From a virus, in IMG/VR virus record IMGVR_UViG_3300042922_000265, positions 62,001 to 126,000 of that record: a DNA stretch of 64,000 nucleotides; one strand, 5' to 3'. Each line of letters opens with the position of its first letter. Position 1 is the first letter of the stretch. Positions 1-43,655 of this stretch are shown here, one piece after another. Under the pieces are notes generated by a model. That model had not been told where the DNA came from. It did not search any database and saw only the letters and a list, made by a program, of their open reading frames with translations. The position numbers were made by a program, and so were the translations under genes.

Positions 1-2525
1 CCGAACCGTCGCATGATGTCCTTGCCGTTCTTCAGCTCGGACCCGTCCGGTGTCGGCGCGGCGGCGGTCATCCGGCGGAACATCCATTCGTTCTCGACGG
101 TTGCTACGCCCTTGGTGGCCAGCCAGCCCTGAATGCCTTGGGGCGCGCCACGAGGGCTCGCCGAACCGGCAACGTAGACGTGCGTGGCCAGCGCATCGTC
201 GTTCCAGTTGATGGTGATGTTCTTGATCTCGATGTCCTCGATGTCCATGACGGCATCCTTGCCGTCCAGACCGAAGTAATCGGGGAAGTAGGCCGCGAAA
301 CTGCCGTCAGGCATGGACTGGAAGTTACGCAGACCCGCCTTGCAGACCGAGGCCACGGACTGGATGATCGGTTCGTCATTGATGAACGCCTTCTCCTCCT
401 GCTCCTTGCCTGATCCGTAGTACGAGGAGATCGCGCTCATGAATTTGCCAGGCTCGAACATGTAGGAGAACAGGTTACGAGCAATCGGCTCGGAGGACCC
501 CGTCTGGTACGTGCCACCATTGGTGCCCTGAGCTGCGGTTCCGGGAGCTACGCCCGTGCTGGGATTGCCTGCCACCTGCGCGGCACGGATCGGATCAAAA
601 GCGATCGGAGATGGCCCCGAATAGGTTGCTGGCGGGTAGGTGACAACCAGTTCAGGCTCAAAGTACAGCGGGGCGACCTTGACGACGTCACCACTCTGTG
701 GAGCATGCAGGATGCTGTTTGCGCCCAGGTAGATGACCACGTGGCCCAGTCCCGGCGGGAAGAGCAGATCCCCCGGCTTAGCCTGTGCCATGGTGATCCG
801 CTGGCCGTTGCTGGCCTGGGTGTAGGTGTCGCGACCGATCTTGATGCCGATGTAGGCGTAGCACGCCTGGGTCAACCCCGAGCAGTCGTAGGCCACCGGT
901 CCGGTAGCGCCCCACTGGTACGGACGGCCCAGCTGAGCCATGGCGAAGTTGATGACCTCGCCCAGGTCGTACTGGGGACGGTTGATGGCCTGATTGACGC
1001 CCTGGGTGCTGACCTGACCGTTGACAGTCGGAATGCCAGGAAGGCCACCGGTGCTGCCGGGGATACCGGCGGTGATCGCAGGCGGCGCAGTGCCACCACC
1101 GGGGATGCCGGTCACACCCTGGCTCATGCCGCCGGTGCCGGTAGCCGTGCCGGTACCCAGCCGGATCGCACGCACCTCCTCGATCGACGTTGCCTCGTGG
1201 GTGGCGTAGTTGCTGCCGTCAGAGAACGCCGAACGCTGCACGGCCTGGCAGGCCGCTGCGCGCGGCATGTTGCGCCAGTCGTGGTCCTTGAGCGCGTTGA
1301 GGAACATGCCGGTGGACTCGCGGACGTTCATCCGCTGATCCACATTGCCCCACCCTGGCTGCTGCTGGTAGAGGCCCACCGAGAGGTGATCGGAGCCCAG
1401 TGCCTCGTGCGGGAACTTCAGCGATTCCGGCACGGCGGTGTTGGCGTACATGATCCAGTTGGACTCGGCCATGATGGTCATGAAGCAGTGCACGGCGGCG
1501 TCGCTCTTCATGGCCGCGTCGGTGTAGTTGGCGTACAGGCGCTGCTGATCCTTCCACGCCTGCTGGTCCTTCCAGTCCGTACCGCCGGAGGCGGCAGTGG
1601 CCGCACCCTGGCCGAGGCCCAGGGACCGGGTGTCCACACCCATACCCATCTCGTCGACCGCGCGAATGACCTCCAGCTTCCTGGACACCGCGTCCAGGTG
1701 GTAGCCACCCTTGGTGACACCCAGCTGGCGTCCCGCCTGCGCACCGACACCACCGGAGGTGTCACTGCCCAGCAGCATCCGGCGGAAGTCCTCGACCTGC
1801 TTCTGGCTGCCCTTGAGCCTGTTGAGCTGGTCGCGCATGTAGTTCATGTAGCCCATGGGGAAGCGCTGGATATGCACCTGAGAGCTGTCCCAGTTTCCGG
1901 CCTCGGTGAGCAGACGGCGCAACGTGGAACCCAGACCGGCGTCCAGCTGGCCGCCCTCAAACCCGTCGCGCTCGTTGTTCTTCATCTGGTCGAAGATCTC
2001 GGCGGACTGCGGCAGTCCGGGGTCCCACCAGGTGTGCAGCAAGCGCTTGAGCGTGCAGCTGGCCCGGAAGTCGGTGGTGCCAGGATAGAGCTGGACCAGG
2101 GGGACCGAGTCCAGATACCCCGAGAACACCTGGTGCCAGCTCAGCCGCTTCATGAAGATCGCTACGCGGTCCATCGGCGCGAACAACGGGGTGTAGCGCC
2201 CCTGACGGCTGCCGTCCTTGGCGGGCTTGTTGGTCAGCCGGAAAGCCGCCGAGCTGACTGAGTTCTCCACCCGGTTGATCGAGACGGCCACGATGTCATC
2301 GCTCACGTCGTACTGCTTGTTGCCGCGCGCGATGATGATGCGGACCTCTGGGGTGTAGACCAGGGTCTTCATCGGCGGTGGCTCGCGGGTGCCGACATCG
2401 GTCAGGTAGCTGTGATCGGGCAGGAAGCTGCCGCTGCTGGCCTCACTGGAGCCGGTGTAACCGCTGCCGGGGGTAGGTCCAGGCAGCGGCGTCACGTTGC
2501 CGATCGGCAGGTTCGGACTGGTCAT
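1..2525 (-). CDS. Tail hub protein with lysozyme-like and NlpC/P60 domains (3' end outside window)
   Basis: Starts with ATG overlapping the stop of the upstream gene (ATGA) and stays open to the window edge, at least 841 codons. The first ~250 residues resemble the gpD/gp27-type hub of contractile tails. Around residues 345-440 lies a lysozyme-like transglycosylase segment with ESNW near residue 354 and a GLYQQQPGWG motif. Residues ~520-640 form an NlpC/P60 peptidase, with Cys548 in YDCSGL, His595 in GHVVIYLG and a later His in LHAPQ. The protein probably sits at the tail tip and cuts host peptidoglycan during DNA entry. The domain reading is firm; the hub role is inferred from position next to the baseplate genes. 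Confidence 0.85.
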   Translation of the reverse strand, partial: MTSPNLPIGNVTPLPGPTPGSGYTGSSEASSGSFLPDHSYLTDVGTREPPPMKTLVYTPEVRIIIARGNKQYDVSDDIVAVSINRVENSVSSAAFRLTNKPAKDGSRQGRYTPLFAPMDRVAIFMKRLSWHQVFSGYLDSVPLVQLYPGTTDFRASCTLKRLLHTWWDPGLPQSAEIFDQMKNNERDGFEGGQLDAGLGSTLRRLLTEAGNWDSSQVHIQRFPMGYMNYMRDQLNRLKGSQKQVEDFRRMLLGSDTSGGVGAQAGRQLGVTKGGYHLDAVSRKLEVIRAVDEMGMGVDTRSLGLGQGAATAASGGTDWKDQQAWKDQQRLYANYTDAAMKSDAAVHCFMTIMAESNWIMYANTAVPESLKFPHEALGSDHLSVGLYQQQPGWGNVDQRMNVRESTGMFLNALKDHDWRNMPRAAACQAVQRSAFSDGSNYATHEATSIEEVRAIRLGTGTATGTGGMSQGVTGIPGGGTAPPAITAGIPGSTGGLPGIPTVNGQVSTQGVNQAINRPQYDLGEVINFAMAQLGRPYQWGATGPVAYDCSGLTQACYAYIGIKIGRDTYTQASNGQRITMAQAKPGDLLFPPGLGHVVIYLGANSILHAPQSGDVVKVAPLYFEPELVVTYPPATYSGPSPIAFDPIRAAQVAGNPSTGVAPGTAAQGTNGGTYQTGSSEPIARNLFSYMFEPGKFMSAISSYYGSGKEQEEKAFINDEPIIQSVASVCKAGLRNFQSMPDGSFAAYFPDYFGLDGKDAVMDIEDIEIKNITINWNDDALATHVYVAGSASPRGAPQGIQGWLATKGVATVENEWMFRRMTAAAPTPDGSELKNGKDIMRRF

Positions 2526-3112
2526 CGGCCTACCGCCGGAGGTGCGGTCGGCAGGATCGCCGGAGGCTGAATCAGGGTGCTGTCTTGTGGGTTGACCGGC
2601 TGGGTGGTGTTGGTGAAGTTCGGCTGGACCAGCAGGATGTCATCTCGGTATCCCCGGTAGGGGGCGATCAGGTCACCGATGATCTTCATGATGTCGCCGA
2701 ATCCCCGGCTGCCCAAGGTTGTCTTCTCGCTCATCATGGAGTCGACCAGCATGACTCCGAACGTGGCCGACGGAGCGACCTCGAATCGCTTCTCGTTGAC
2801 GGTGTAGCTGGTGATGTACCCCGTCCAGTTGTCGATGTTGCGCTCGGGCCACCACAGTGTCAGCTCACTGTTCTTCTCCATCCGAGACTTCTGCTGATGC
2901 TCACGGACCCACGACTCGAACTCGTGCTTGTCCTCCAGGCTCTTGTACTGGACGGTGAAGTTGATGTCGGGCTGGCCGCACCGGATCGGGAAGTGGTGCA
3001 TCATCTTGGCCGTCTGCGCGCTGGTGATCGATGCATTCATCGGCGAACGGAACTGCGTGACGTTCATTTTGAACTCACGCGACTTGTAGTCGTAGATGTA
3101 CAGGTGGCTCAC
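2522..3112 (-). CDS. Baseplate/tail structural protein, 196 aa
   Basis: GTG start overlapping the stop of the preceding gene, and its own stop overlaps the hub start, so the three are translationally coupled. No enzyme motif is visible. Residues 1-130 look like a compact beta-rich domain and the C-terminus is rich in Pro, Gln and Thr. The place between tape measure and hub is typical of small baseplate or hub-adaptor proteins of contractile tails. The role is inferred from position alone. Confidence 0.6.
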   Translation of the reverse strand: MSHLYIYDYKSREFKMNVTQFRSPMNASITSAQTAKMMHHFPIRCGQPDINFTVQYKSLEDKHEFESWVREHQQKSRMEKNSELTLWWPERNIDNWTGYITSYTVNEKRFEVAPSATFGVMLVDSMMSEKTTLGSRGFGDIMKIIGDLIAPYRGYRDDILLVQPNFTNTTQPVNPQDSTLIQPPAILPTAPPAVGR

Positions 3113-3288
3113 TGATGCTGCCCCCGTCCCATGATGCGCGAAGGGCGCTGGATGGGGTCCAGATCCTCACCAGCGCGGAAGAAGAACCCCCACTGGTTGC
3201 TCCAGACCAGACCGTTGCAGTCCCAGTGGACCTCCCAGCCAGTGTTGCGCGGGCGGCTCACCGGGGTGTTGCTCACGTAATCAGCCAT
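3109..3288 (-). CDS. Small baseplate-operon protein, 59 aa
   Basis: ATG at 3288 follows a strong ribosome site (AGGGAGG) that lies inside the end of the upstream gene. A longer in-frame reading upstream would run through that gene and is rejected. The protein is rich in Trp, Arg and Asn, has no membrane segment, and is not recognised. Its stop overlaps the next start. Confidence 0.65.
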   Translation of the reverse strand: MADYVSNTPVSRPRNTGWEVHWDCNGLVWSNQWGFFFRAGEDLDPIQRPSRIMGRGQHQ

Positions 3289-3290
3289 GG

Positions 3291-3998
3291 TTACCTCCCT
3301 GGCGTCGGTGCGGTCACGCCCACGCCGGGCAGGCCGCTGTCGGGCTTGTTGACGGCCTCCGGCAAGTAGATCCCGCCGCCGCCGGTTGCGAATTGCAGAA
3401 TGTCCTGATAGGTGTCCAGGCCCTGACGCACCACGCCGCCGACGTCGCCGATGATGTCCATCAGCGGGCTGCCGGTCAGGTTCGGGTCGTTGTATGGCGA
3501 ACGCTGGAATCCCACGCCGTCCATCAGGCGGCGCAGCTCTGCCGAGAGCGAGTTGCGCGTCATGAGGCCCGAGACGTCCTCCTGGACCTTCATGGTGATC
3601 TCGAACTCGCGCAGCACCTCGTTCATGGCGTCCTGGAAGGGGACGCTGGCGATGTAGCAATTGAGCTTCCACCCACGGGTGGTGTACTCGAACGTCGCCG
3701 GGGTGCCGTCGCGCTGGTCAACCATGACGTCACGCAGGAACTTGGACATCCGGTTGATGTAGTCCCAGCCACCCCGACCGGCCTCGGCCTTGAGACTGAA
3801 GTCATCGATGCGGGTGCCCAGAAGCTGGATCACGCGCCCGCCGTAGGTCTGGTCGATGCGCTTGTTGAGCGTGTAGGACCAGCGGAACTCGTTCGGGTTG
3901 GTACGGAACCGGAAGGTTCGCCCATGGTGGGTCAGGCTGGCGATGCCATTCTCACCCTTGCGTAGGGGCGCAGCCTGCTGCGGGAAGGTGTAGGCCAT
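3291..3998 (-). CDS. Baseplate/tail structural protein, 235 aa
   Basis: ATG overlaps the tape-measure stop. The N-terminal 160 residues are regular and probably beta-rich; the last ~70 residues are Gly/Pro-rich. No catalytic motif is visible. Directly downstream of the tape measure this would be a tail-tip or baseplate initiator protein; I cannot place it in a named family. Confidence 0.65.
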   Translation of the reverse strand: MAYTFPQQAAPLRKGENGIASLTHHGRTFRFRTNPNEFRWSYTLNKRIDQTYGGRVIQLLGTRIDDFSLKAEAGRGGWDYINRMSKFLRDVMVDQRDGTPATFEYTTRGWKLNCYIASVPFQDAMNEVLREFEITMKVQEDVSGLMTRNSLSAELRRLMDGVGFQRSPYNDPNLTGSPLMDIIGDVGGVVRQGLDTYQDILQFATGGGGIYLPEAVNKPDSGLPGVGVTAPTPGR

Positions 3999-20437: not shown

Positions 20438-22153
20438 TCACTCTCCGATCAGGTCGTCAACCGAGGCCAACAGCGACTGGACGCTGTTGAGCCGGTGCGA
20501 GAAGTCCTCGTCGGCCTTGAACGGGGTACCCCCGAGAGCCTTGGAATCCATCGCCCAGTCGCGTGGGTTGTCGCTGTGGTTGGTCGGGCAGTGCGGGTCG
20601 TGCATCTCCTGGGGGCCTGCTGAGCAGTACTGGCAGCCCTTCCAGAGGTCCTCGGCGGCCTCACCACGGAAGGGACTGTCGTACGCCCCTCCGCTCTGCT
20701 GGTGGGGAAAGCTCTGACTCTGCACGATGCTGTCGAAGTCGTCGAACGCTCCCAGGTGCGCCATATGCGTCTGGACGAACTCATCCTGGGGATGCTGCGG
20801 GTGTGCGGCGATCCAGGTCGCCAGCGAGTTGTCCCACCAACCGCCCTGGCTGGCCAGGAACTCCAGGTAGGCGCGGCGGTTCCAGTTCGGAGTCTGCCGC
20901 AGATCCTGCTTCGGACGGCGAGGATCATCCCACCAGCCACCGCCCTGATCGCGCTGGTAACGCGGGATGGGGTTGGTCAGCGGACCCAGTCCCTGGTTGG
21001 GCTTGTCCGGGTTGAAGGTCTTGGGTGGGGTGCCGGGTTCGGGCAAACCCGCGCCCTTGCCAGCGGCGTCCACGTCGGCCTTGAACTTGGTCCACGGACC
21101 GGCCTGGACCTGCTTGGGCACCAGGTGCTTGTTCGGGTCGGGCTCGGCGGCGTTGATGCGCCGGGTGGCCTCCCAAGCCGCACGCGCGTGTAGGTCGTAG
21201 GACGGGTCGATGTGGCCCTTGTCCTTGCCCAGAGAGACCTTCTTGCCGAAGTAGGCCGGAGTCTCGTACTTCAGGCCAGCCAGATCGGCACCGTGCGGGG
21301 TGTTGCTCATCCTCACGTGGTGGGTGTCGATCGTGGAATCCTGGTCCGAACCCATGCGCCAGTCGGGCTCGCCCGTGGTCGGGTTGGTTGGGTGCTGGTA
21401 GTAGCCCGCGTCATCTTCATGACCGGGTCGCGGCTCGCGCAAGCTGGTGGGGTCCAGGATGTTCTTGGCGAAGGCGGAACGCTTCGGGCCGGTCAGGGCC
21501 TGACGCCAGCCGTCGCCCTCGGAGTGGAAGATCTGCTTGGCCGACTCGGTGTGGCTACCCATGCCGGGGACGGTGAAGTTGGGGTCGGACCCGTCGTAGT
21601 GGGTCAGGAAGTGGTGACCCTTCTCCAGGTTCTCGTCCCAGCCGGTCTTGGGGCTGTAGGCGCTCATGACGGCCACGGTCTTGCCATGGTCGCCGGTCGT
21701 CTTGGCCGCCAAGTCCTTGGTGGCATCGTGGGCGGCCTGGTACCAGACACGGCCTGCGTAGCCCTGCTCCGGGGTCATACCCTGCTGGTGGCTGATGTGG
21801 TTTTGAACCAGGTCCTCGAACGTGTGGCCCGAGCCGTTGAGCACACCCCACGGGTCATGCTCGGGGTCCTCGGTGGGGCGCTTCTTGCCCAGCTCCGAAG
21901 GATGTGGGATGTCGCTGGACATCGGTGGCCGGATCGGGGAGTGGAAGGCACCTCCGTTGCCGTTGCGCCAGTCCTGAGCAGTGAAGTCCCCGGACACGCC
22001 CTGCGGAGCTGGTGCTGCTTGCTGCTGGCCGTAGCCAGGGTTTTCCTGGCCGCGACCCGGTGGCTTACCGACCGGTACCGGCGGGATCGACGGTGCGGCG
22101 GTACGCCACGGGGACTGCATCGCGAACTGGTCGCGCGCGGTGGTGATACGCAT
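20438..22153 (-). CDS. DUF7178-like protein with long extensions, 571 aa
   Basis: Residues ~120-280 match what I recall of the DUF7178 phage family: AYSPKTGWDENL, then LTGPKRSAFAKNI, then STIDTHHVRM. That layout recalls helix-hairpin-helix glycosylase-like folds. Flanking parts are Pro/Gly/Gln-rich, and the C-terminus has a CQYC ... HCPTNH cysteine/histidine cluster that could bind zinc. It lies among virion genes and may be packaged. Biochemical role unknown; the family link is from memory. Confidence 0.55.
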   Translation of the reverse strand: MRITTARDQFAMQSPWRTAAPSIPPVPVGKPPGRGQENPGYGQQQAAPAPQGVSGDFTAQDWRNGNGGAFHSPIRPPMSSDIPHPSELGKKRPTEDPEHDPWGVLNGSGHTFEDLVQNHISHQQGMTPEQGYAGRVWYQAAHDATKDLAAKTTGDHGKTVAVMSAYSPKTGWDENLEKGHHFLTHYDGSDPNFTVPGMGSHTESAKQIFHSEGDGWRQALTGPKRSAFAKNILDPTSLREPRPGHEDDAGYYQHPTNPTTGEPDWRMGSDQDSTIDTHHVRMSNTPHGADLAGLKYETPAYFGKKVSLGKDKGHIDPSYDLHARAAWEATRRINAAEPDPNKHLVPKQVQAGPWTKFKADVDAAGKGAGLPEPGTPPKTFNPDKPNQGLGPLTNPIPRYQRDQGGGWWDDPRRPKQDLRQTPNWNRRAYLEFLASQGGWWDNSLATWIAAHPQHPQDEFVQTHMAHLGAFDDFDSIVQSQSFPHQQSGGAYDSPFRGEAAEDLWKGCQYCSAGPQEMHDPHCPTNHSDNPRDWAMDSKALGGTPFKADEDFSHRLNSVQSLLASVDDLIGE

Positions 22154-22399: not shown

Positions 22400-22428
22400 A
22401 CTATACCATGCTAGAACTTTATTTACAC
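22400..22428 (-). promoter_or_regulatory. Promoter, GTTCTAG family
   Basis: -35 GTGTAA (22423-22428), 17-bp spacer containing GTTCTAG, -10 TATAGT (22400-22405). The start codon at 22393 is 6 nt beyond the -10. Confidence 0.55.
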
Positions 22429-23883
22429 TAGGCCGTTCACTCGCGCAGCGGGAACCATGATCTCGGCCAGCTGCTCGACGATCTTGGCGGCGTAGTACCG
22501 GTTGCCCACCTTGGTGGCGTGGATGCCATCGCGCTTGGACACCAGCTGGGCCTGCTGGGAGTTGGTCGGCACACCCTGCGTGCCCGTGGTCGACGGACCG
22601 TGTCCGGTCCACCAACGCTGCGCCGCGTCCGGGCCGAACCCGTTGATGTAGTAGGTGCGCGGACGCTCGCCTGCTGCGCGGATCTGCCCCTGCACGTGCG
22701 GGTAGGAGTCATCGTCGACTCGCGGCGGGCCGATGGCGTTGCCGAACAGGGTGTCATCGAACGGCTCGGGGCTGACGTGCACGATGGTGCAGTGCGGGTC
22801 CTGGGCGTGGGTCCAGTCGTAGACCTCCCCGGCGCGGTCGTACATCTGCTGCTCGGTGACGCCGCCGGAGCTGGCGTCGTTCCAGGTGCCATTGAGCAGG
22901 TAGACCAGCGGGCGCAGGCCCAAGGGCTGCCCGAAGTCCTCCCCGGCATGGTGAATGAAGGACTTGCCTCGGGCCGCCATCGCGCCCACGGCATTGGTCA
23001 TCCACCCACGGCGGCTGGCCGATGATGTCCTCGACACACCACCCACGGTGATCTGGATAAACGGCAGCGCCGGATGGAAAGAGGTGACCGACCCGATGGT
23101 GTCGTCAAAGATCTGGCCGACTCCGTTGACGAAGAATCCGGTGGCTCCCTGCGCACGGCGCGCCCAGGTCATACCGGTCATCTCGAACAGGTAGTCAATG
23201 ATGCCGTAGGTGAACCACCCGGTGACATTGTCGGCGGCCAGCGCCTGGGTGCCCTCAAAGTAGCTGTCGCCGTCAGCGATGCCGAACAGTCGCGGCGGAG
23301 CGGGCTCGACAATAGAGGTGCCGTCGGTGCGAATGGAGAAGAAGGCCGCCGCGCCCATCACCACCCGGATGCGGCCACAGTACGGCGCGGCAAAGGTGAT
23401 GTTGCGATAGCTCATGTCCCCGGATGTGCGGGTGACAATCAGGGGGTTTTCAGCCAGCTTCCAGGTGCCTCCGGCGTGCTCGATGTAGACCTGGATGTTG
23501 CCGCCGTATTCGGTGCCGCTGTTGTTGCCACCGCTGTTCCAGTGCGCGATAGAGAATCGGCTCCCGGTGAACAGGAACTCAAACTCGGTGACGTGCTGGT
23601 AGTGGTTGTTTACCAGTCCCGCAGCCTGAGCCGAGTAGACACGCGGTGTAGCGACGTTACGACAACCGCCATAGGTCTGAGGCCCGAAGAAGGATGCGCG
23701 GATGTCGCGCTCCCACTTTTGACCCTGGATGTTGAAATGCAGCTTGGCGTCACTCCACTTGTACTCAGCCTGGCTGGTGTAGGTGGTCGCGGTGTTGCTG
23801 ATGACATCAGCCGAAACGATGCCGCTGGGCAGAACACCCCTGACGGGCTTGAAGTAATCACCCAGACGAACCATCGCTGTCAT
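22423..23883 (-). CDS. Virion SGNH-hydrolase protein, 486 aa
   Basis: Residues ~190-480 hold an SGNH/GDSL hydrolase: block I DGDS with Ser207, block III GTWND with Asn335, and block V DGIH with Asp452 and His455. Residues 1-190 form a beta-rich N-terminal domain shared with the next gene upstream, with the YFKP start motif. In phage surface proteins such domains usually deacetylate or de-esterify host glycans or lipids, which would help adsorption or wall passage. The active site looks complete. Start ATG overlaps the neighbouring stop. Confidence 0.8.
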   Translation of the reverse strand: MTAMVRLGDYFKPVRGVLPSGIVSADVISNTATTYTSQAEYKWSDAKLHFNIQGQKWERDIRASFFGPQTYGGCRNVATPRVYSAQAAGLVNNHYQHVTEFEFLFTGSRFSIAHWNSGGNNSGTEYGGNIQVYIEHAGGTWKLAENPLIVTRTSGDMSYRNITFAAPYCGRIRVVMGAAAFFSIRTDGTSIVEPAPPRLFGIADGDSYFEGTQALAADNVTGWFTYGIIDYLFEMTGMTWARRAQGATGFFVNGVGQIFDDTIGSVTSFHPALPFIQITVGGVSRTSSASRRGWMTNAVGAMAARGKSFIHHAGEDFGQPLGLRPLVYLLNGTWNDASSGGVTEQQMYDRAGEVYDWTHAQDPHCTIVHVSPEPFDDTLFGNAIGPPRVDDDSYPHVQGQIRAAGERPRTYYINGFGPDAAQRWWTGHGPSTTGTQGVPTNSQQAQLVSKRDGIHATKVGNRYYAAKIVEQLAEIMVPAARVNGLV

Positions 23884-25133
23884 CGCTGCCCCCTTGCACG
23901 AGGCAGGTCAACATTGATGGCGGCCAGAAGGTTGGCGATCTTGGCAGCCAAGTAGGCGAACCCCTGATCGTTGGGCGTCGCACCATCCGCGCCAATGAGG
24001 CCCGCCTGCTGGCTGGTGGTAGGTGAACCGTTGGAACCCGCGCCCGTCCACCACGGCGCAGTGGGACCAAAGGCGTTGATGTAGACGGCCTTGGGGGTCT
24101 TGGCCACAGCCGCCGCCTGTTCGATCCGGTTGTAATCGTGACCAGAGGACGGTGACGGCGGTCCGGTCAGTGTTCCGGCCACGCCTGCGCCCGCGAAAGG
24201 CATGGGAGATACGTGCACAATCGTCACGTGACGATCGAGCCCCCTGATCCACTGAAGGCAGTCCAACGCGCGGGTGGCCATCGGTCCGGTCGGAGACCCC
24301 GTAGCACTGCCCCTGCCACCGTCCTCCAACGTGCCCACCAGGAGGAAGAACAGCGGCTTGGCGGCCAGGTCGTCGCCCAGCAGCACCTTGCGCGCGGCGG
24401 AGAACCACCGGGTAGCCCCACTGGGTCCTGTCGTGTCAGCGGTGACCGTCCCCGAGCCGTTGTAGAAGAACCCGGACTGGTAGCCACGACGCGCCCAGAC
24501 GATTCCGGTGCGCTCGAACAGATAGTCGCAGAGCCCGCCAGTCAGAAACGAGGTGCCCGACGCCTGCTTGATACCTGCGCCGTCCACCCACTTGTCACCG
24601 TCGCAGACGCCGAACGCGCGATCGGGAGAGGGCTTGATGATGGCGGACTGCTCGCAGCCGACGCCGACGAAAGCACCGCCGCCCAAGACGAAGCGGATGC
24701 GGCCATGGAAGGGCGCGGCGAAGACGATGCGCCGGTACATCAGGCCGGTGGTGGTCCCCGTCAGCGGTGCGGCCTTGGCCTTGTACATCTGGCCGCCGAC
24801 CTCGATGTAGACCTGGCTGTCGTAATAGTCCGACCCGACGAAAGCAATGTCCAGGATGGTTCCGGTGAACTCGAACTCGGTCTCGATGATGTGGGTGACC
24901 CCGGTACGGTCACTGGCCGCATTGGCGACACCATCAGCGTCACCGGCTCCCGCGTCCTGCCAGCGCTGGCCCTGGGTATTGAAGCTGGCCGCGCTCGACC
25001 GCGCGTAGATCGTGGCGGGATTGACGAAAGTCTGAGCCGTGGCATTGTATTCATCGGTGGTGAGGATGCCAGCGGGGATCAACCCGCCGATGGGCTTGAA
25101 GTACTGGCTGGCCCTGCCGGTGTTGGTGATCAT
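23880..25133 (-). CDS. Inactive SGNH-like paralogue, 417 aa
   Basis: Clear full-length paralogue of the downstream gene: same YFKP(I/V)GG/RG start, FAAPFHGRIRFV versus FAAPYCGRIRVV, CDYLFERTGIVWARR versus IDYLFEMTGMTWARR, and the same end. All catalytic blocks are changed: GDS is GDK (Lys181), GxND is GTLED (Glu270), and DxxH is DGAT (Thr386). It should therefore be a binding or structural version. The pair is coupled by an ATGA overlap. Confidence 0.8.
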   Translation of the reverse strand: MITNTGRASQYFKPIGGLIPAGILTTDEYNATAQTFVNPATIYARSSAASFNTQGQRWQDAGAGDADGVANAASDRTGVTHIIETEFEFTGTILDIAFVGSDYYDSQVYIEVGGQMYKAKAAPLTGTTTGLMYRRIVFAAPFHGRIRFVLGGGAFVGVGCEQSAIIKPSPDRAFGVCDGDKWVDGAGIKQASGTSFLTGGLCDYLFERTGIVWARRGYQSGFFYNGSGTVTADTTGPSGATRWFSAARKVLLGDDLAAKPLFFLLVGTLEDGGRGSATGSPTGPMATRALDCLQWIRGLDRHVTIVHVSPMPFAGAGVAGTLTGPPSPSSGHDYNRIEQAAAVAKTPKAVYINAFGPTAPWWTGAGSNGSPTTSQQAGLIGADGATPNDQGFAYLAAKIANLLAAINVDLPRARGQR

Positions 25134-26473
25134 CAGACACCCACCATCAGCAGGTCGTAGACGTAGACCTGTCCCGGTTCCAACTCGCCCGCCACCTTGA
25201 GCACCGCATTCGTGGTACTCGTGGTCTCGACATAGGGGAACGTGGCCGCAGTCAGTGCGCCTTGAGGGCTCACCGCGACGTATGGACGCACCGTGAAGCC
25301 GTCCAGAACCAGGGTGGCCAGGGTGCCAAACGACACCGGCCCGGTGCCAGTGGTGATAGAGATGCGGTAGGCCAAGCGAATGCCCTCGGCCTCGTAGGTG
25401 GCACCGACGCCCGCATTGGCATGCAAGGTGATCGTCGGCAGGTCACCTTCGGCGCTGAGAACCTCGTAGACCTGGGCCAATGTGACGTCCGCGCCGTCGG
25501 CTCCAGCAGCTCCAGTGGCACCCGTGTTTCCAGTGTCACCCTTGGGTCCCTGGATACCCTGAGGCCCCTGGGCTCCAGCGGCACCGGTATCGCCGGTATC
25601 ACCCTTATCGCCCTTGGGGCCTGTCGCGCCAGTCGCTCCGACCTGGCCCTGAGGTCCTTGAGCGCCCTGCAGACCGTCAGGCCCGATGGGTCCCTGGGGT
25701 CCCTGGCTGCCGGTAGGTCCGGTGGGGCCGACGTCCCCGGTGTCACCCTTGGCACCGGTCGCCCCGGTGGGTCCGGTAGGCCCGGTCTGGCCTACGGGAC
25801 CTTGTGCTCCGGTAGGTCCTGCTGCCCCGGTGTTGCCGGTGGGACCCTGAGGTCCCTGGTTGCCCGTGTCGCCCTTTGGTCCCGTGGCTCCGGTAGGTCC
25901 TGCCGGTCCGGTCAGTCCTCGCTCACCACGCAGGCCGGTGCTGCCTGTGGCTCCCGCTGGTCCGGTGGCTCCGGTGCTGCCTGCTGCCCCCTGGTCGCCC
26001 TTGAGACCGCGTTCTCCCCGGTCTCCCGTGGCACCCTTGGGTCCAGTAGCTCCGGTAGCTCCAGCTGGCCCTGTGAGGCCCCTCTCACCGCGATCACCCT
26101 TGTCACCCTTGGGTCCACGCGCACCAGTCGCGCCGGTATCGCCCTTGATGCCCTGAAGGCCACGCTCACCGCGTGCGCCGGTCTCACCGGGTAGTCCTCG
26201 CGGCCCAGTCGGTCCTGGAGGCCCCTGGGGGCCGGTATCACCCTTCGGTCCGCCTGGTGTGCCGGGTGGCCCCGGTGGGCCAGCAGGACCTTGCGGTCCC
26301 ATGGTCTCCACTCGGACGACGGTGGGACTGGCCGGGACGCTGTCGACCTGCTTGAGGCCCTCCGCCGGGGGATTCCTGATAACCCAGCCGCCGTTGGAGA
26401 GCTTCACGCTCCACAATCTGGTCAGCTTGGAGTAGCTCCACTCCCGACCCTGTTCGTCAACCCACTTGGCCAC
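25133..26473 (-). CDS. Collagen-like fibre protein, 446 aa
   Basis: GTG at 26473 is chosen because it lies 5 nt after GGAGGAGG in a stem-loop; an in-frame GTG at 26488 would overlap that site. An N-terminal ~55-residue domain ([18 protein letters not shown]) is followed by about 90 Gly-X-Y triplets, with many GPQG, GPAG and KGDTG units, and a ~110-residue C-terminal beta domain likely to trimerise. Phage collagen-like proteins form trimeric fibres. The last gene before the SGNH pair. Confidence 0.85.
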
Positions 26474-26478
26474 AGTGA

Positions 26479-26507
26479 CCTCCTCCACCTATTACGGGTG
26501 GAGGAGG
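26479..26507 (-). promoter_or_regulatory. Stem-loop sequestering the ribosome site of the collagen-like gene
   Basis: CCTCCTCCACC and GGTGGAGGAGG pair perfectly over 11 bp around a 7-nt loop. The GGAGGAGG ribosome site is wholly in the 3' arm, 5 nt before the GTG start, so translation should require unfolding. Confidence 0.7.
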
Positions 26508-26520
26508 GTGTGCTGGCAGG

Positions 26521-26880
26521 TCAAGCCTTTCGTGTCGAGATGACCAGCAGGTCCCGGATGAACCGGACCAGCATGCACAGTCCCAGAGACCCGGACAAGA
26601 CGACCTCCAGAACGTAGCCCCGCTCCTGGAAGAGCAACACGGAAAATCGACTCACCGTGTAGGCCATGGCCAGGTCACCAGCGGCGCACAGCAGCGCAGA
26701 CTTGCGGGTGTCGATGACGTATCCCACCAGGACGATCAACGGCGCAGCGACATAGACGATGGCTCGTTGCTGAAAGCCCTCGGTGATGACGGTGTGCACG
26801 CCCCAGAACCAGATCAGCAGGTACACCACGAACTGGTACAAGAAGATCTGCTCAATGGTGATGTGCAGTCGCTTCAGCAT
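26521..26880 (-). CDS. Small polytopic membrane protein, 119 aa
   Basis: Three to four hydrophobic helices (FLYQFVVYLLIWFWGV, AIVYVAAPLIVLVGYVI, a third near residue 85) with a charged C-terminus. First gene after the capsid terminator. Could be a holin or another inner-membrane protein; there is no lysin next to it in the window. Confidence 0.6.
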   Translation of the reverse strand: MLKRLHITIEQIFLYQFVVYLLIWFWGVHTVITEGFQQRAIVYVAAPLIVLVGYVIDTRKSALLCAAGDLAMAYTVSRFSVLLFQERGYVLEVVLSGSLGLCMLVRFIRDLLVISTRKA

Positions 26881-26962: not shown

Positions 26963-27970
26963 TTACGCCTTGCGGAGGATGACGATACCGCGAGGGTTGA
27001 GGATGGCCATACCGACCAGCTCGTCCATGACCCAGCCCTTGTGGAACTGCTCGACCATGTTGTTCTCCTCGACGTCCAAGGAGTACATGACCGGGAACAC
27101 GCCGAGGAACTGCGGCTCCGGGGTCAGGTAGACAGTGCCACGCGGGATGATGATCGACTTGCCGATCTGGAACTCGCCGAACTGCACGATGCGCTCACCG
27201 GCCACCACGGAGTCCTTGAAGGCCCAACCGGTGGTGTTGATGTCCCACCGGTACAGGTCGCGGTATTCCTGGGGGTTGGCCAGGAGGCGCGAGCTGTCCA
27301 GCTGACGCTGGTCGGTGTAGGTGACTGCGGTGTAGAGATCGTCGGGCATGAGGTGCGTGCCTGCGATGGTGATCTCGTTCGGCAGTGCGCCGCCGCCGGG
27401 GCCGGGGACAGCCGAGGCGTCCACGACACGGTAGCTGACGGCTGCAGCCTCCAGCAGCGTCACGAGGCGCGAGTCCTCCTGGCGCATGATGGCCTGCTTG
27501 GTCATGTCCTGCGTGTACTCCACGATGTTGCTGCGGAGGTAGTACAGGTCTTCCTTCTTGATCTGCGGGAAGGACGCGATGCGGAACAGCTGGACCTCGA
27601 CACGCTTGCCCTCGAACGGCGTGATCTTGATCTCGCCCTCGTTGCCGTGCAGCATGTAAGCCTGGCCGAGGTCGTCCAGCACGTCGTACTGGATCGGGAT
27701 ACCCGGCGTCAGGGTGTCCTCCAGCAGCACGTTACGCAGGATGCCCTGGTAGCGGAGCTGCAGCTGGATTGGGCCGATCATCGACTGACCGAGGCGCTGG
27801 ATGCCGCCGACCTTGTCGCTCAGGATGTGAGCGAGCTTGGTCTGCTTCTCCTGCGTGGAGAGCTTGCGCCCTGCCATGCGGCGCTTGGCCTGCACGATGT
27901 CAGCGACGTAGTCGTCACTGCTCTTGGCGAAACGGCCCAGGCCGCTGCCAACTGCGGTTGGGAGACTCAT
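26963..27970 (-). CDS. Major capsid protein, 335 aa
   Basis: HK97-type size and layout: an N-terminal helical arm (KLSTQEKQTKLAHILSDKVG), an alpha/beta core, a long beta-rich E-loop-like region, and a conserved end (PQFLGVFPVMYSLDVEENN). Preceded by a decoration-like gene and the protease and followed by a terminator, the usual high-expression place. Start overlaps the upstream stop (TAATG). Confidence 0.85.
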   Translation of the reverse strand: MSLPTAVGSGLGRFAKSSDDYVADIVQAKRRMAGRKLSTQEKQTKLAHILSDKVGGIQRLGQSMIGPIQLQLRYQGILRNVLLEDTLTPGIPIQYDVLDDLGQAYMLHGNEGEIKITPFEGKRVEVQLFRIASFPQIKKEDLYYLRSNIVEYTQDMTKQAIMRQEDSRLVTLLEAAAVSYRVVDASAVPGPGGGALPNEITIAGTHLMPDDLYTAVTYTDQRQLDSSRLLANPQEYRDLYRWDINTTGWAFKDSVVAGERIVQFGEFQIGKSIIIPRGTVYLTPEPQFLGVFPVMYSLDVEENNMVEQFHKGWVMDELVGMAILNPRGIVILRKA

Positions 27971-43438: not shown

Positions 43439-43584
43439 AAGCTGCTGCAGGTTTCTACAGGTTGGCTGGCCCTCCCCCGTTACAGGGGACCTCCCTCGCG
43501 CTCTCTCGACGGTCTATGCGCACTACTCCGTCGGTGCCCCGCTCAGTTCGCCACCGTCAGTTGCAACATCGGGTGGAGGCCATG

Positions 43585-43655
43585 CGGCCCATCCCGGAGT
43601 CGAACCGGGCTATCGCTGGGGTTAGAAGCCAGCTAGGTCGCCAGACCAATGAGCC
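43585..43655 (-). tRNA. tRNA-Arg-like (anticodon TCT), irregular
   Basis: Acceptor GGCTCAT pairs with ATGGGCC (discriminator G) and the T arm is perfect (CCCGG TTCGACT CCGGG). The D arm is short (GGTC-TGGC-GACC). The anticodon stem GCTGG/CCAGC is perfect only if the loop has 9 nt (CTTCTAACC), with TCT in the usual context. No CCA is encoded. May be a modified or non-canonical tRNA. Confidence 0.6.

What the first reader, a model, noticed from the sequence alone, without database searches (positions are those of the whole stretch)
23880..23883. Tandem SGNH proteins: one with intact active site, one with all catalytic blocks replaced
Ser207, Asn335, Asp452 and His455 are present in the downstream copy; the upstream paralogue has Lys181, Glu270 and Thr386 at those places while framework and ends are conserved. 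This suggests division into an enzyme and a pseudoenzyme, perhaps a hetero-oligomeric spike. Residue numbers come from the translated genes.
Basis: seen in the sequence. Interest (0 to 1): 0.7.

Follow-up and report, generated by a model that had tools for sequence, protein, structure and literature searches.

The report
Phage esterase beside its inactivated twin
A large virus related to mycobacteria-infecting phages carries, directly behind a collagen-like fibre gene, two sister genes of which one looks like a working surface esterase and the other has lost its catalytic residues but is kept intact in several unrelated phages, so the dead copy very probably has a structural or binding job of its own.

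Summary
Two overlapping minus-strand genes (25133-23880 'up', 417 aa; 23883-22423 'dn', 486 aa; ATGA overlap) encode paralogues, 35% identical end to end. Dn has Ser207/Asn335/Asp452/His455; up has Lys181/Glu270/Thr386 there but keeps the Asp (Asp383), so 'all blocks replaced' is slightly too strong. AlphaFold models of both give one fold, a beta-sandwich plus SGNH domain, like carbohydrate esterase family 2 and SsfX3. The pair is not a one-off: an IMG/VR phage and a prophage carry the same ordered pair with a dead upstream and a live downstream copy; a Saccharimonadia contig carries it with both alive. A tree built without active-site columns gives one duplication, one loss of catalysis and a persistently live downstream clade. 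Of 37 positions invariant in live members, up changes 9, eight in active-site blocks; otherwise up is as conserved as dn. The dead sites differ between phages (K/E/T, G/A/N, K/D/N), which speaks against new catalysis. Enzyme plus pseudoenzyme is well supported; a hetero-oligomeric spike is plausible but untested. The cassette lies just downstream of the capsid gene, in the slot where HyRo has its annotated head-fibre gene, so capsid or tail location is open.

The parts
23880..25133 (-). Upstream SGNH-like protein (417 aa), catalytically dead paralogue (pseudoenzyme)
22423..23883 (-). Downstream SGNH hydrolase (486 aa), intact active site
23880..23883 (-). ATGA overlap of the two genes (stop of up, start of dn)
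25133..26488 (-). Collagen-like fibre protein (451 aa) directly upstream; TGATG one-base overlap with up
25136..25462 (-). C-terminal domain of the fibre, conserved (about 40-54%) in fibres that precede the SGNH genes in L012, L015 and L016
23263..23265 (-). dn Ser207 codon (nucleophile, block I GDSY)
23146..23148 (-). dn Gly246 codon (block II, oxyanion hole)
22879..22881 (-). dn Asn335 codon (block III GTWND, oxyanion hole)
22528..22530 (-). dn Asp452 codon (block V DGIH)
22519..22521 (-). dn His455 codon (block V DGIH)
24591..24593 (-). up Lys181 codon, at the nucleophile position
24324..24326 (-). up Glu270 codon, at the oxyanion Asn position
23985..23987 (-). up Asp383 codon, the retained catalytic Asp
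23976..23978 (-). up Thr386 codon, at the catalytic His position
26963..27970 (-). Major capsid protein, the upstream genomic anchor of the cassette
   Evidence: phrog_2522, E 4e-156
20438..22153 (-). phrog_2878 / DUF7178 protein, the downstream genomic anchor

Best explanation
The locus encodes a virion fibre cassette: a collagen-like fibre followed, with overlapping start and stop codons, by two tandem-duplicated two-domain proteins (beta-sandwich plus SGNH domain). Dn is a serine esterase with a complete Ser-His-Asp triad and oxyanion residues that most likely removes acetyl or acyl groups from a glycan or glycolipid of the actinobacterial envelope. Up is a pseudoenzyme: it lost the nucleophile, the oxyanion Asn and Gly and the catalytic His once, in an ancestor shared with two other viruses, and is retained for a non-catalytic job, most likely binding (scaffold to dn and/or grip on the glycan that dn processes) next to the fibre tip. 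Shown: paralogy, residue loss, conservation of the dead copy, order of the genes, predicted folds. Inferred: esterase activity of dn and its substrate, virion location, the non-catalytic role of up and any physical complex.
For: Full-length paralogy. Live motifs in dn and in the live relatives; loss of Ser, Asn, His and the block II Gly in win_up, L012_up and L014_up. Tree without active-site columns: up clade 97/95, dead clade 95/92 with live L016_up as its sister, dn clade 100/100; holding win_up with win_dn is rejected, p 4e-54. Changes at live-invariant sites concentrated in active-site blocks. Among the viruses up is as conserved as dn or more so: 63 vs 58% to L012, 51 vs 46% to L014; NG86 dN 0.31 and dS 1.35 for win_up/L012_up. 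Both models match SsfX3 (Z about 23) and CE2 esterases (Z 17-22) over about 290-310 residues. Conserved order fibre-up-dn with 1-4 nt overlaps in the window, L012 and L016, and fibre-SGNH in L015. Phage tail proteins with SGNH domains are experimentally active esterases elsewhere (PMC13123978).
Against: No assay and no complex model. dn gives only a weak Pfam Lipase_GDSL_2 hit (E 0.0016, below the gathering cut-off), and its model is uncertain around the active-site loops (pLDDT under 50 at 211-221, 247-265, 299-322). No virion proteomics, so structural-protein status rests on neighbours. Only three dead upstream genes are known. L014_dn has TDSY for GDSY and a long branch.
Confidence: 0.66

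Rival explanations
1. Up and dn are independent receptor-binding proteins (a lectin-like one and an esterase) that share a fold by duplication but do not form one complex.
For: L015 and L017 carry a single SGNH copy of this family, and Orla-type phages carry two live copies separated by two small genes, so a copy can work alone.
Against: Strict adjacency and start/stop overlap of up and dn in the window, L012, L014 and L016.
Confidence: 0.3
2. Up is still an enzyme with other chemistry (for example Lys181-Glu270-Asp383).
For: Asp383 and the framework are retained; K at the nucleophile position recurs in L014_up.
Against: The three dead copies carry different residues at the sites (K/E/T, G/A/N, K/D/N); a new active site would be expected to be conserved.
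Confidence: 0.05
3. Up is a decaying, functionless duplicate.
For: Loss of catalytic residues.
Against: Intact frames in three divergent viruses, identity at least that of the live copy, dN well below dS, framework invariants kept.
Confidence: 0.04
4. The cassette decorates the capsid (head fibre) rather than the tail. This concerns where it sits, and is compatible with the best explanation of what it is.
For: It lies between the major capsid gene and the phrog_2878 gene, where HyRo has a gene annotated head fiber; HyRo gp94 shares a 24-27 aa motif (70-75%) with the fibres of L012 and L016.
Against: In L012, L014, L015 and Orla the homologues sit after tail genes and next to lysis genes; the L015 fibre begins with an Mtd_N domain; the window fibre shows no match to HyRo gp94 beyond chance and its first 65 aa have no match among phages. 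The cryo-EM paper on the relative Myrna reports a minor capsid protein (gp98) and no decoration protein for it (PMC7150772), but Myrna lacks this cassette.
Confidence: 0.4

Closest known systems
Gordonia phages Orla, Hexbug, Nodigi (Emalynvirus) gp31 and gp34, annotated 'hydrolase'
   Same: Same protein family (28-36% identity) and two copies close together; gp31 starts with a short collagen-like segment
   Different: Both copies keep Ser, Asn, Asp and His; they belong to a separate duplication in the tree; located after the lysis cassette
Carbohydrate esterase family 2 (CtCE2, CjCE2A; PDB 2wao, 2waa) and SsfX3 (PDB 3skv)
   Same: N-terminal beta-sandwich plus C-terminal SGNH domain over about 300 residues, Z 17-23; CtCE2 binds cellulose non-catalytically through its active site, a precedent for an esterase pocket used for binding (PMC2661963)
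   Different: 9-15% sequence identity; DxxH rather than the D-x-H spacing of CjCE2A; up has no catalytic Ser or His
SGNH-domain receptor-binding proteins of Klebsiella prophages and coliphage G7C gp63.1
   Same: Phage tail proteins with an SGNH domain shown to be esterases (PMC13123978)
   Different: No paralogous dead partner was found described in the library searched
Saccharimonadia SGNH proteins (L021, L022, L023) and the L016 pair
   Same: Same family; L016 has the same fibre-up-dn order
   Different: All catalytic sites intact; L021-L023 are single fused proteins on bacterial chromosomes

Membership tests
SGNH hydrolase (dn) | Block I GDS Ser, block II Gly, block III Asn, block V DxxH | tested here: met
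   GDSY 205-208, GATG 246-249, GTWND 332-336, DGIH 452-455; conserved in the live relatives
SGNH hydrolase (dn) | SGNH fold | tested here: met
   AlphaFold2 model, pTM 0.82; VIA-align Z 12-23 against many SGNH structures
SGNH hydrolase (up) | SGNH fold | tested here: met
   Model pLDDT 82, pTM 0.87; same best matches
SGNH hydrolase (up) | Catalytic Ser and His, oxyanion Gly and Asn | tested here: not met
   Lys181, Thr386, QSG, Glu270. Filed as a catalytically dead homologue, not as an SGNH hydrolase
SGNH hydrolase (dn) | Esterase activity | not testable with these tools
   needs a pNPA assay
Carbohydrate esterase family 2 | N-terminal jelly roll (about 130-160 aa) plus C-terminal SGNH domain | tested here: met
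   Full-length match, 293-308 aligned residues to 2wao/2waa; definition from PMC2661963
Carbohydrate esterase family 2 | Recognisable sequence similarity to CE2 members | tested here: not met
   No CE2 model listed in Pfam scans; no PDB sequence hit at E<=1; 11-15% identity in the structural alignments
Carbohydrate esterase family 2 | Invariant Ser-His dyad | tested here: met
   dn only; up fails
Head fiber protein (HyRo gp94 type, phrog_1954/phrog_5711) | Sequence similarity of the fibre | tested here: not met
   The window fibre's best matches are collagen tail-fibre families; no phrog_1954 among the 25 shown; its C-terminal domain has no phrog hit
Head fiber protein (HyRo gp94 type, phrog_1954/phrog_5711) | Gene slot between major capsid protein and phrog_2878 protein | tested here: met

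The most novel reading that the evidence does not exclude
A duplicated virion esterase in which one copy was converted once into a non-catalytic glycan-binding or adaptor subunit that obligately pairs with its live sister on a fibre tip, spread between unrelated actinobacterial phages as a fibre-pseudoenzyme-enzyme cassette, and shared with Saccharimonadia, relatives of which live on actinobacteria.
Probability: 0.35. Interest if true: 0.68.

Novelty: new variant of a known kind. Interest (0 to 1): 0.52.

Why it matters
Phage SGNH esterases are common, but a dedicated dead paralogue conserved next to a live one across viruses is a natural experiment on how phage receptor-binding enzymes separate gripping from cutting. 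Receptors of large actinobacterial myoviruses are poorly known (own knowledge), and a paired binder and esterase would give two proteins with which to pull down the target glycan. The occurrence of the same cassette on a Saccharimonadia contig suggests that epibionts and phages of actinobacteria draw on the same surface-attack proteins.

Tried and rejected
Catalytic residues elsewhere in up: alignments show none taking over. New active site in up: rejected because the replacements are not conserved. Tree driven by the dead sites themselves: rebuilt without the five blocks, same topology. Database artefact: K181 and E270 seen again on contig L007. Other viral pairs: two further scans of viral contigs with up-only and dn-only alignments gave no new loci; plasmids none; PHROGs has no family for either protein. 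Attempt to place the fibre by its N-terminus or C-terminal domain among phages: no match. A Foldseek match of dn to the HFTV1 capsid turret (8qpg, E 5e-6) has TM 0.16 and was not used. L016 as a binning error: its neighbour TrmH-like gene is up to 69% identical to genes of other genomes of the family, so the contig is bacterial, though assembly chimerism cannot be excluded. Two family scans failed on a wrong coordinate and were repeated. Literature searches for phage SGNH pseudoenzymes: none found.

Full report
What was checked. The finding points at 23880-23883, which is the ATGA shared by two minus-strand genes. The first (25133-23880, 417 aa, 'up') and the second (23883-22423, 486 aa, 'dn') are paralogues over their whole length, 35% identity, E 2e-72. 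Dn carries GDSY (Ser207), GATG (Gly246), GTWND (Asn335) and DGIH (Asp452, His455). The same columns in up hold GDKW (Lys181), QSG, GTLED (Glu270) and DGAT (Asp383, Thr386).

Where it lies. The window is part of a 167 kb virus record. Its best-known relatives are the mycobacterial myoviruses Phabba, Myrna and the cluster C1 phages (82-85% identity over parts of 20-32 kb). Gene order on the minus strand: cement protein (PF23968), major capsid protein (phrog_2522), a 119-aa protein without matches, a collagen-like fibre of 451 aa, up, dn, then the phrog_2878 protein. Myrna has only two small genes at that place; HyRo has an HNH gene, a gene annotated head fiber and two others. The cassette is thus an insertion in a variable slot next to the capsid gene. 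Fibre and up overlap by one base (TGATG), up and dn by four.

Relatives. tblastn against 50,697 phage records finds only three: Gordonia phages Orla, Hexbug and Nodigi, each with two copies (gp31, gp34), all with intact active sites. Scans of IMG/VR and of bacterial genomes add L012 (identical in L013), L014 (a contig with an integrase-like recombinase gene), L015 (single copy), L016 (a Saccharimonadia MAG contig), L017 (Gordonia jinhuaensis, single copy) and the near-identical fragment L007. In L012 and L014 the upstream copy is dead and the downstream copy live; in L016 both are live. Dead sites: window K/E/T, L012 G/A/N, L014 K/D/N at the Ser/Asn/His positions; the Asp is kept in all three.

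Evolution. A maximum-likelihood tree of 18 proteins built without the five active-site blocks gives an up clade (97/95), inside it the three dead copies as a clade (95/92) with the live L016_up as sister, and a dn clade (100/100) of four live copies (with all columns). The simplest reading is one tandem duplication and one loss of catalysis before the three viruses' cassettes diverged; the Orla pair is a separate duplication. Of 37 positions invariant in 14 live proteins, win_up changes 9, 8 of them in active-site blocks (P 0.004); L012_up the same; the live L016_up, as a control, changes 1 of 38. Among the viruses the dead copy is at least as conserved as the live one (63 vs 58%, 51 vs 46%) with dN far below dS (dS near 1.3 is close to saturation, so ratios are rough). 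This is a maintained pseudoenzyme, not a decaying gene.

Fold. AlphaFold2 models from ten-sequence alignments (dn pLDDT 72.6, pTM 0.82; up 82.0, 0.87) both show a beta-sandwich followed by an SGNH domain. VIA-align gives SsfX3 (Z 22.8 and 22.9) and CE2 esterases (Z 17-22) as best solved matches, covering both domains. CE2 residues in CjCE2A are Ser160, Gly205, Asn255, Asp333 and His335 (PMC2661963), the same set of roles as assigned to dn. CtCE2 of that family binds cellulose in its active site without cutting it, and its S612A mutant binds about eightfold better, a direct precedent for the kind of change seen in up. Trp182 beside the former nucleophile is shared by all three dead copies and could be a sugar platform; that is inference.

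Function. Dn is most likely an envelope de-acylating enzyme, as shown for SGNH receptor-binding proteins of other phages (PMC13123978); up most likely gives binding or assembly. The fibres ahead of the SGNH genes in the window, L012, L015 and L016 share a C-terminal domain of about 105 aa (38-55% identity), the likely attachment point. Whether up and dn form one complex, and whether the fibre sits on head or tail, could not be decided: the gene slot favours the head, the position of homologues in other phages favours the tail.

Judgement. It is a new variant of a known kind (phage SGNH fibre enzymes), of moderate interest.

Noticed in passing
L016 (Saccharimonadia MAG contig), 3-3672; also L021, L022, L023, L020: Saccharimonadia carry this SGNH family: one contig has the phage-like fibre-up-dn cassette (54-60% identical to the window), and three other genomes carry single fibre-fused copies beside housekeeping genes (glutaredoxin-like, purine NTPase-like, ATP synthase-like by reading the ORFs). 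This suggests gene exchange between actinobacterial phages and epibionts of actinobacteria.
   Followed up: partly
window 43584-43655, minus strand: ARAGORN calls a tRNA-Pyl with anticodon CTA next to a Leu/Ser tRNA cluster; possibly an amber suppressor tRNA.
   Followed up: no
L015 5684-6961: A second SGNH protein with an Mtd_N N-terminal domain lies one gene upstream of the fibre; the next fibre also starts with Mtd_N.
   Followed up: no
L012 5962-7989: The fibre ahead of the SGNH pair holds a cellulase-like (GH5/GH39) domain between its N-terminus and the shared C-terminal domain, so this phage may combine a glycosidase with the esterase pair.
   Followed up: no
L003 3698-4237 (HyRo gp94) and fibres of L012, L016: A 24-27 aa motif (SGKPDVIAAGATQ...IGAGTSSLALGTT type) is shared between HyRo's annotated head fiber and the fibres of L012 and L016.
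   Followed up: partly
L014 9212-10828: The live downstream copy has TDSY in place of GDSY and evolves fast (branch 1.1-1.2), while Ser, Asn, Asp and His are kept.
   Followed up: no
window 26521-26880, minus strand: A 119-aa hydrophobic protein between capsid and fibre genes has no match in Pfam, only a chance-level PHROGs hit, and no match in phage records.
   Followed up: partly
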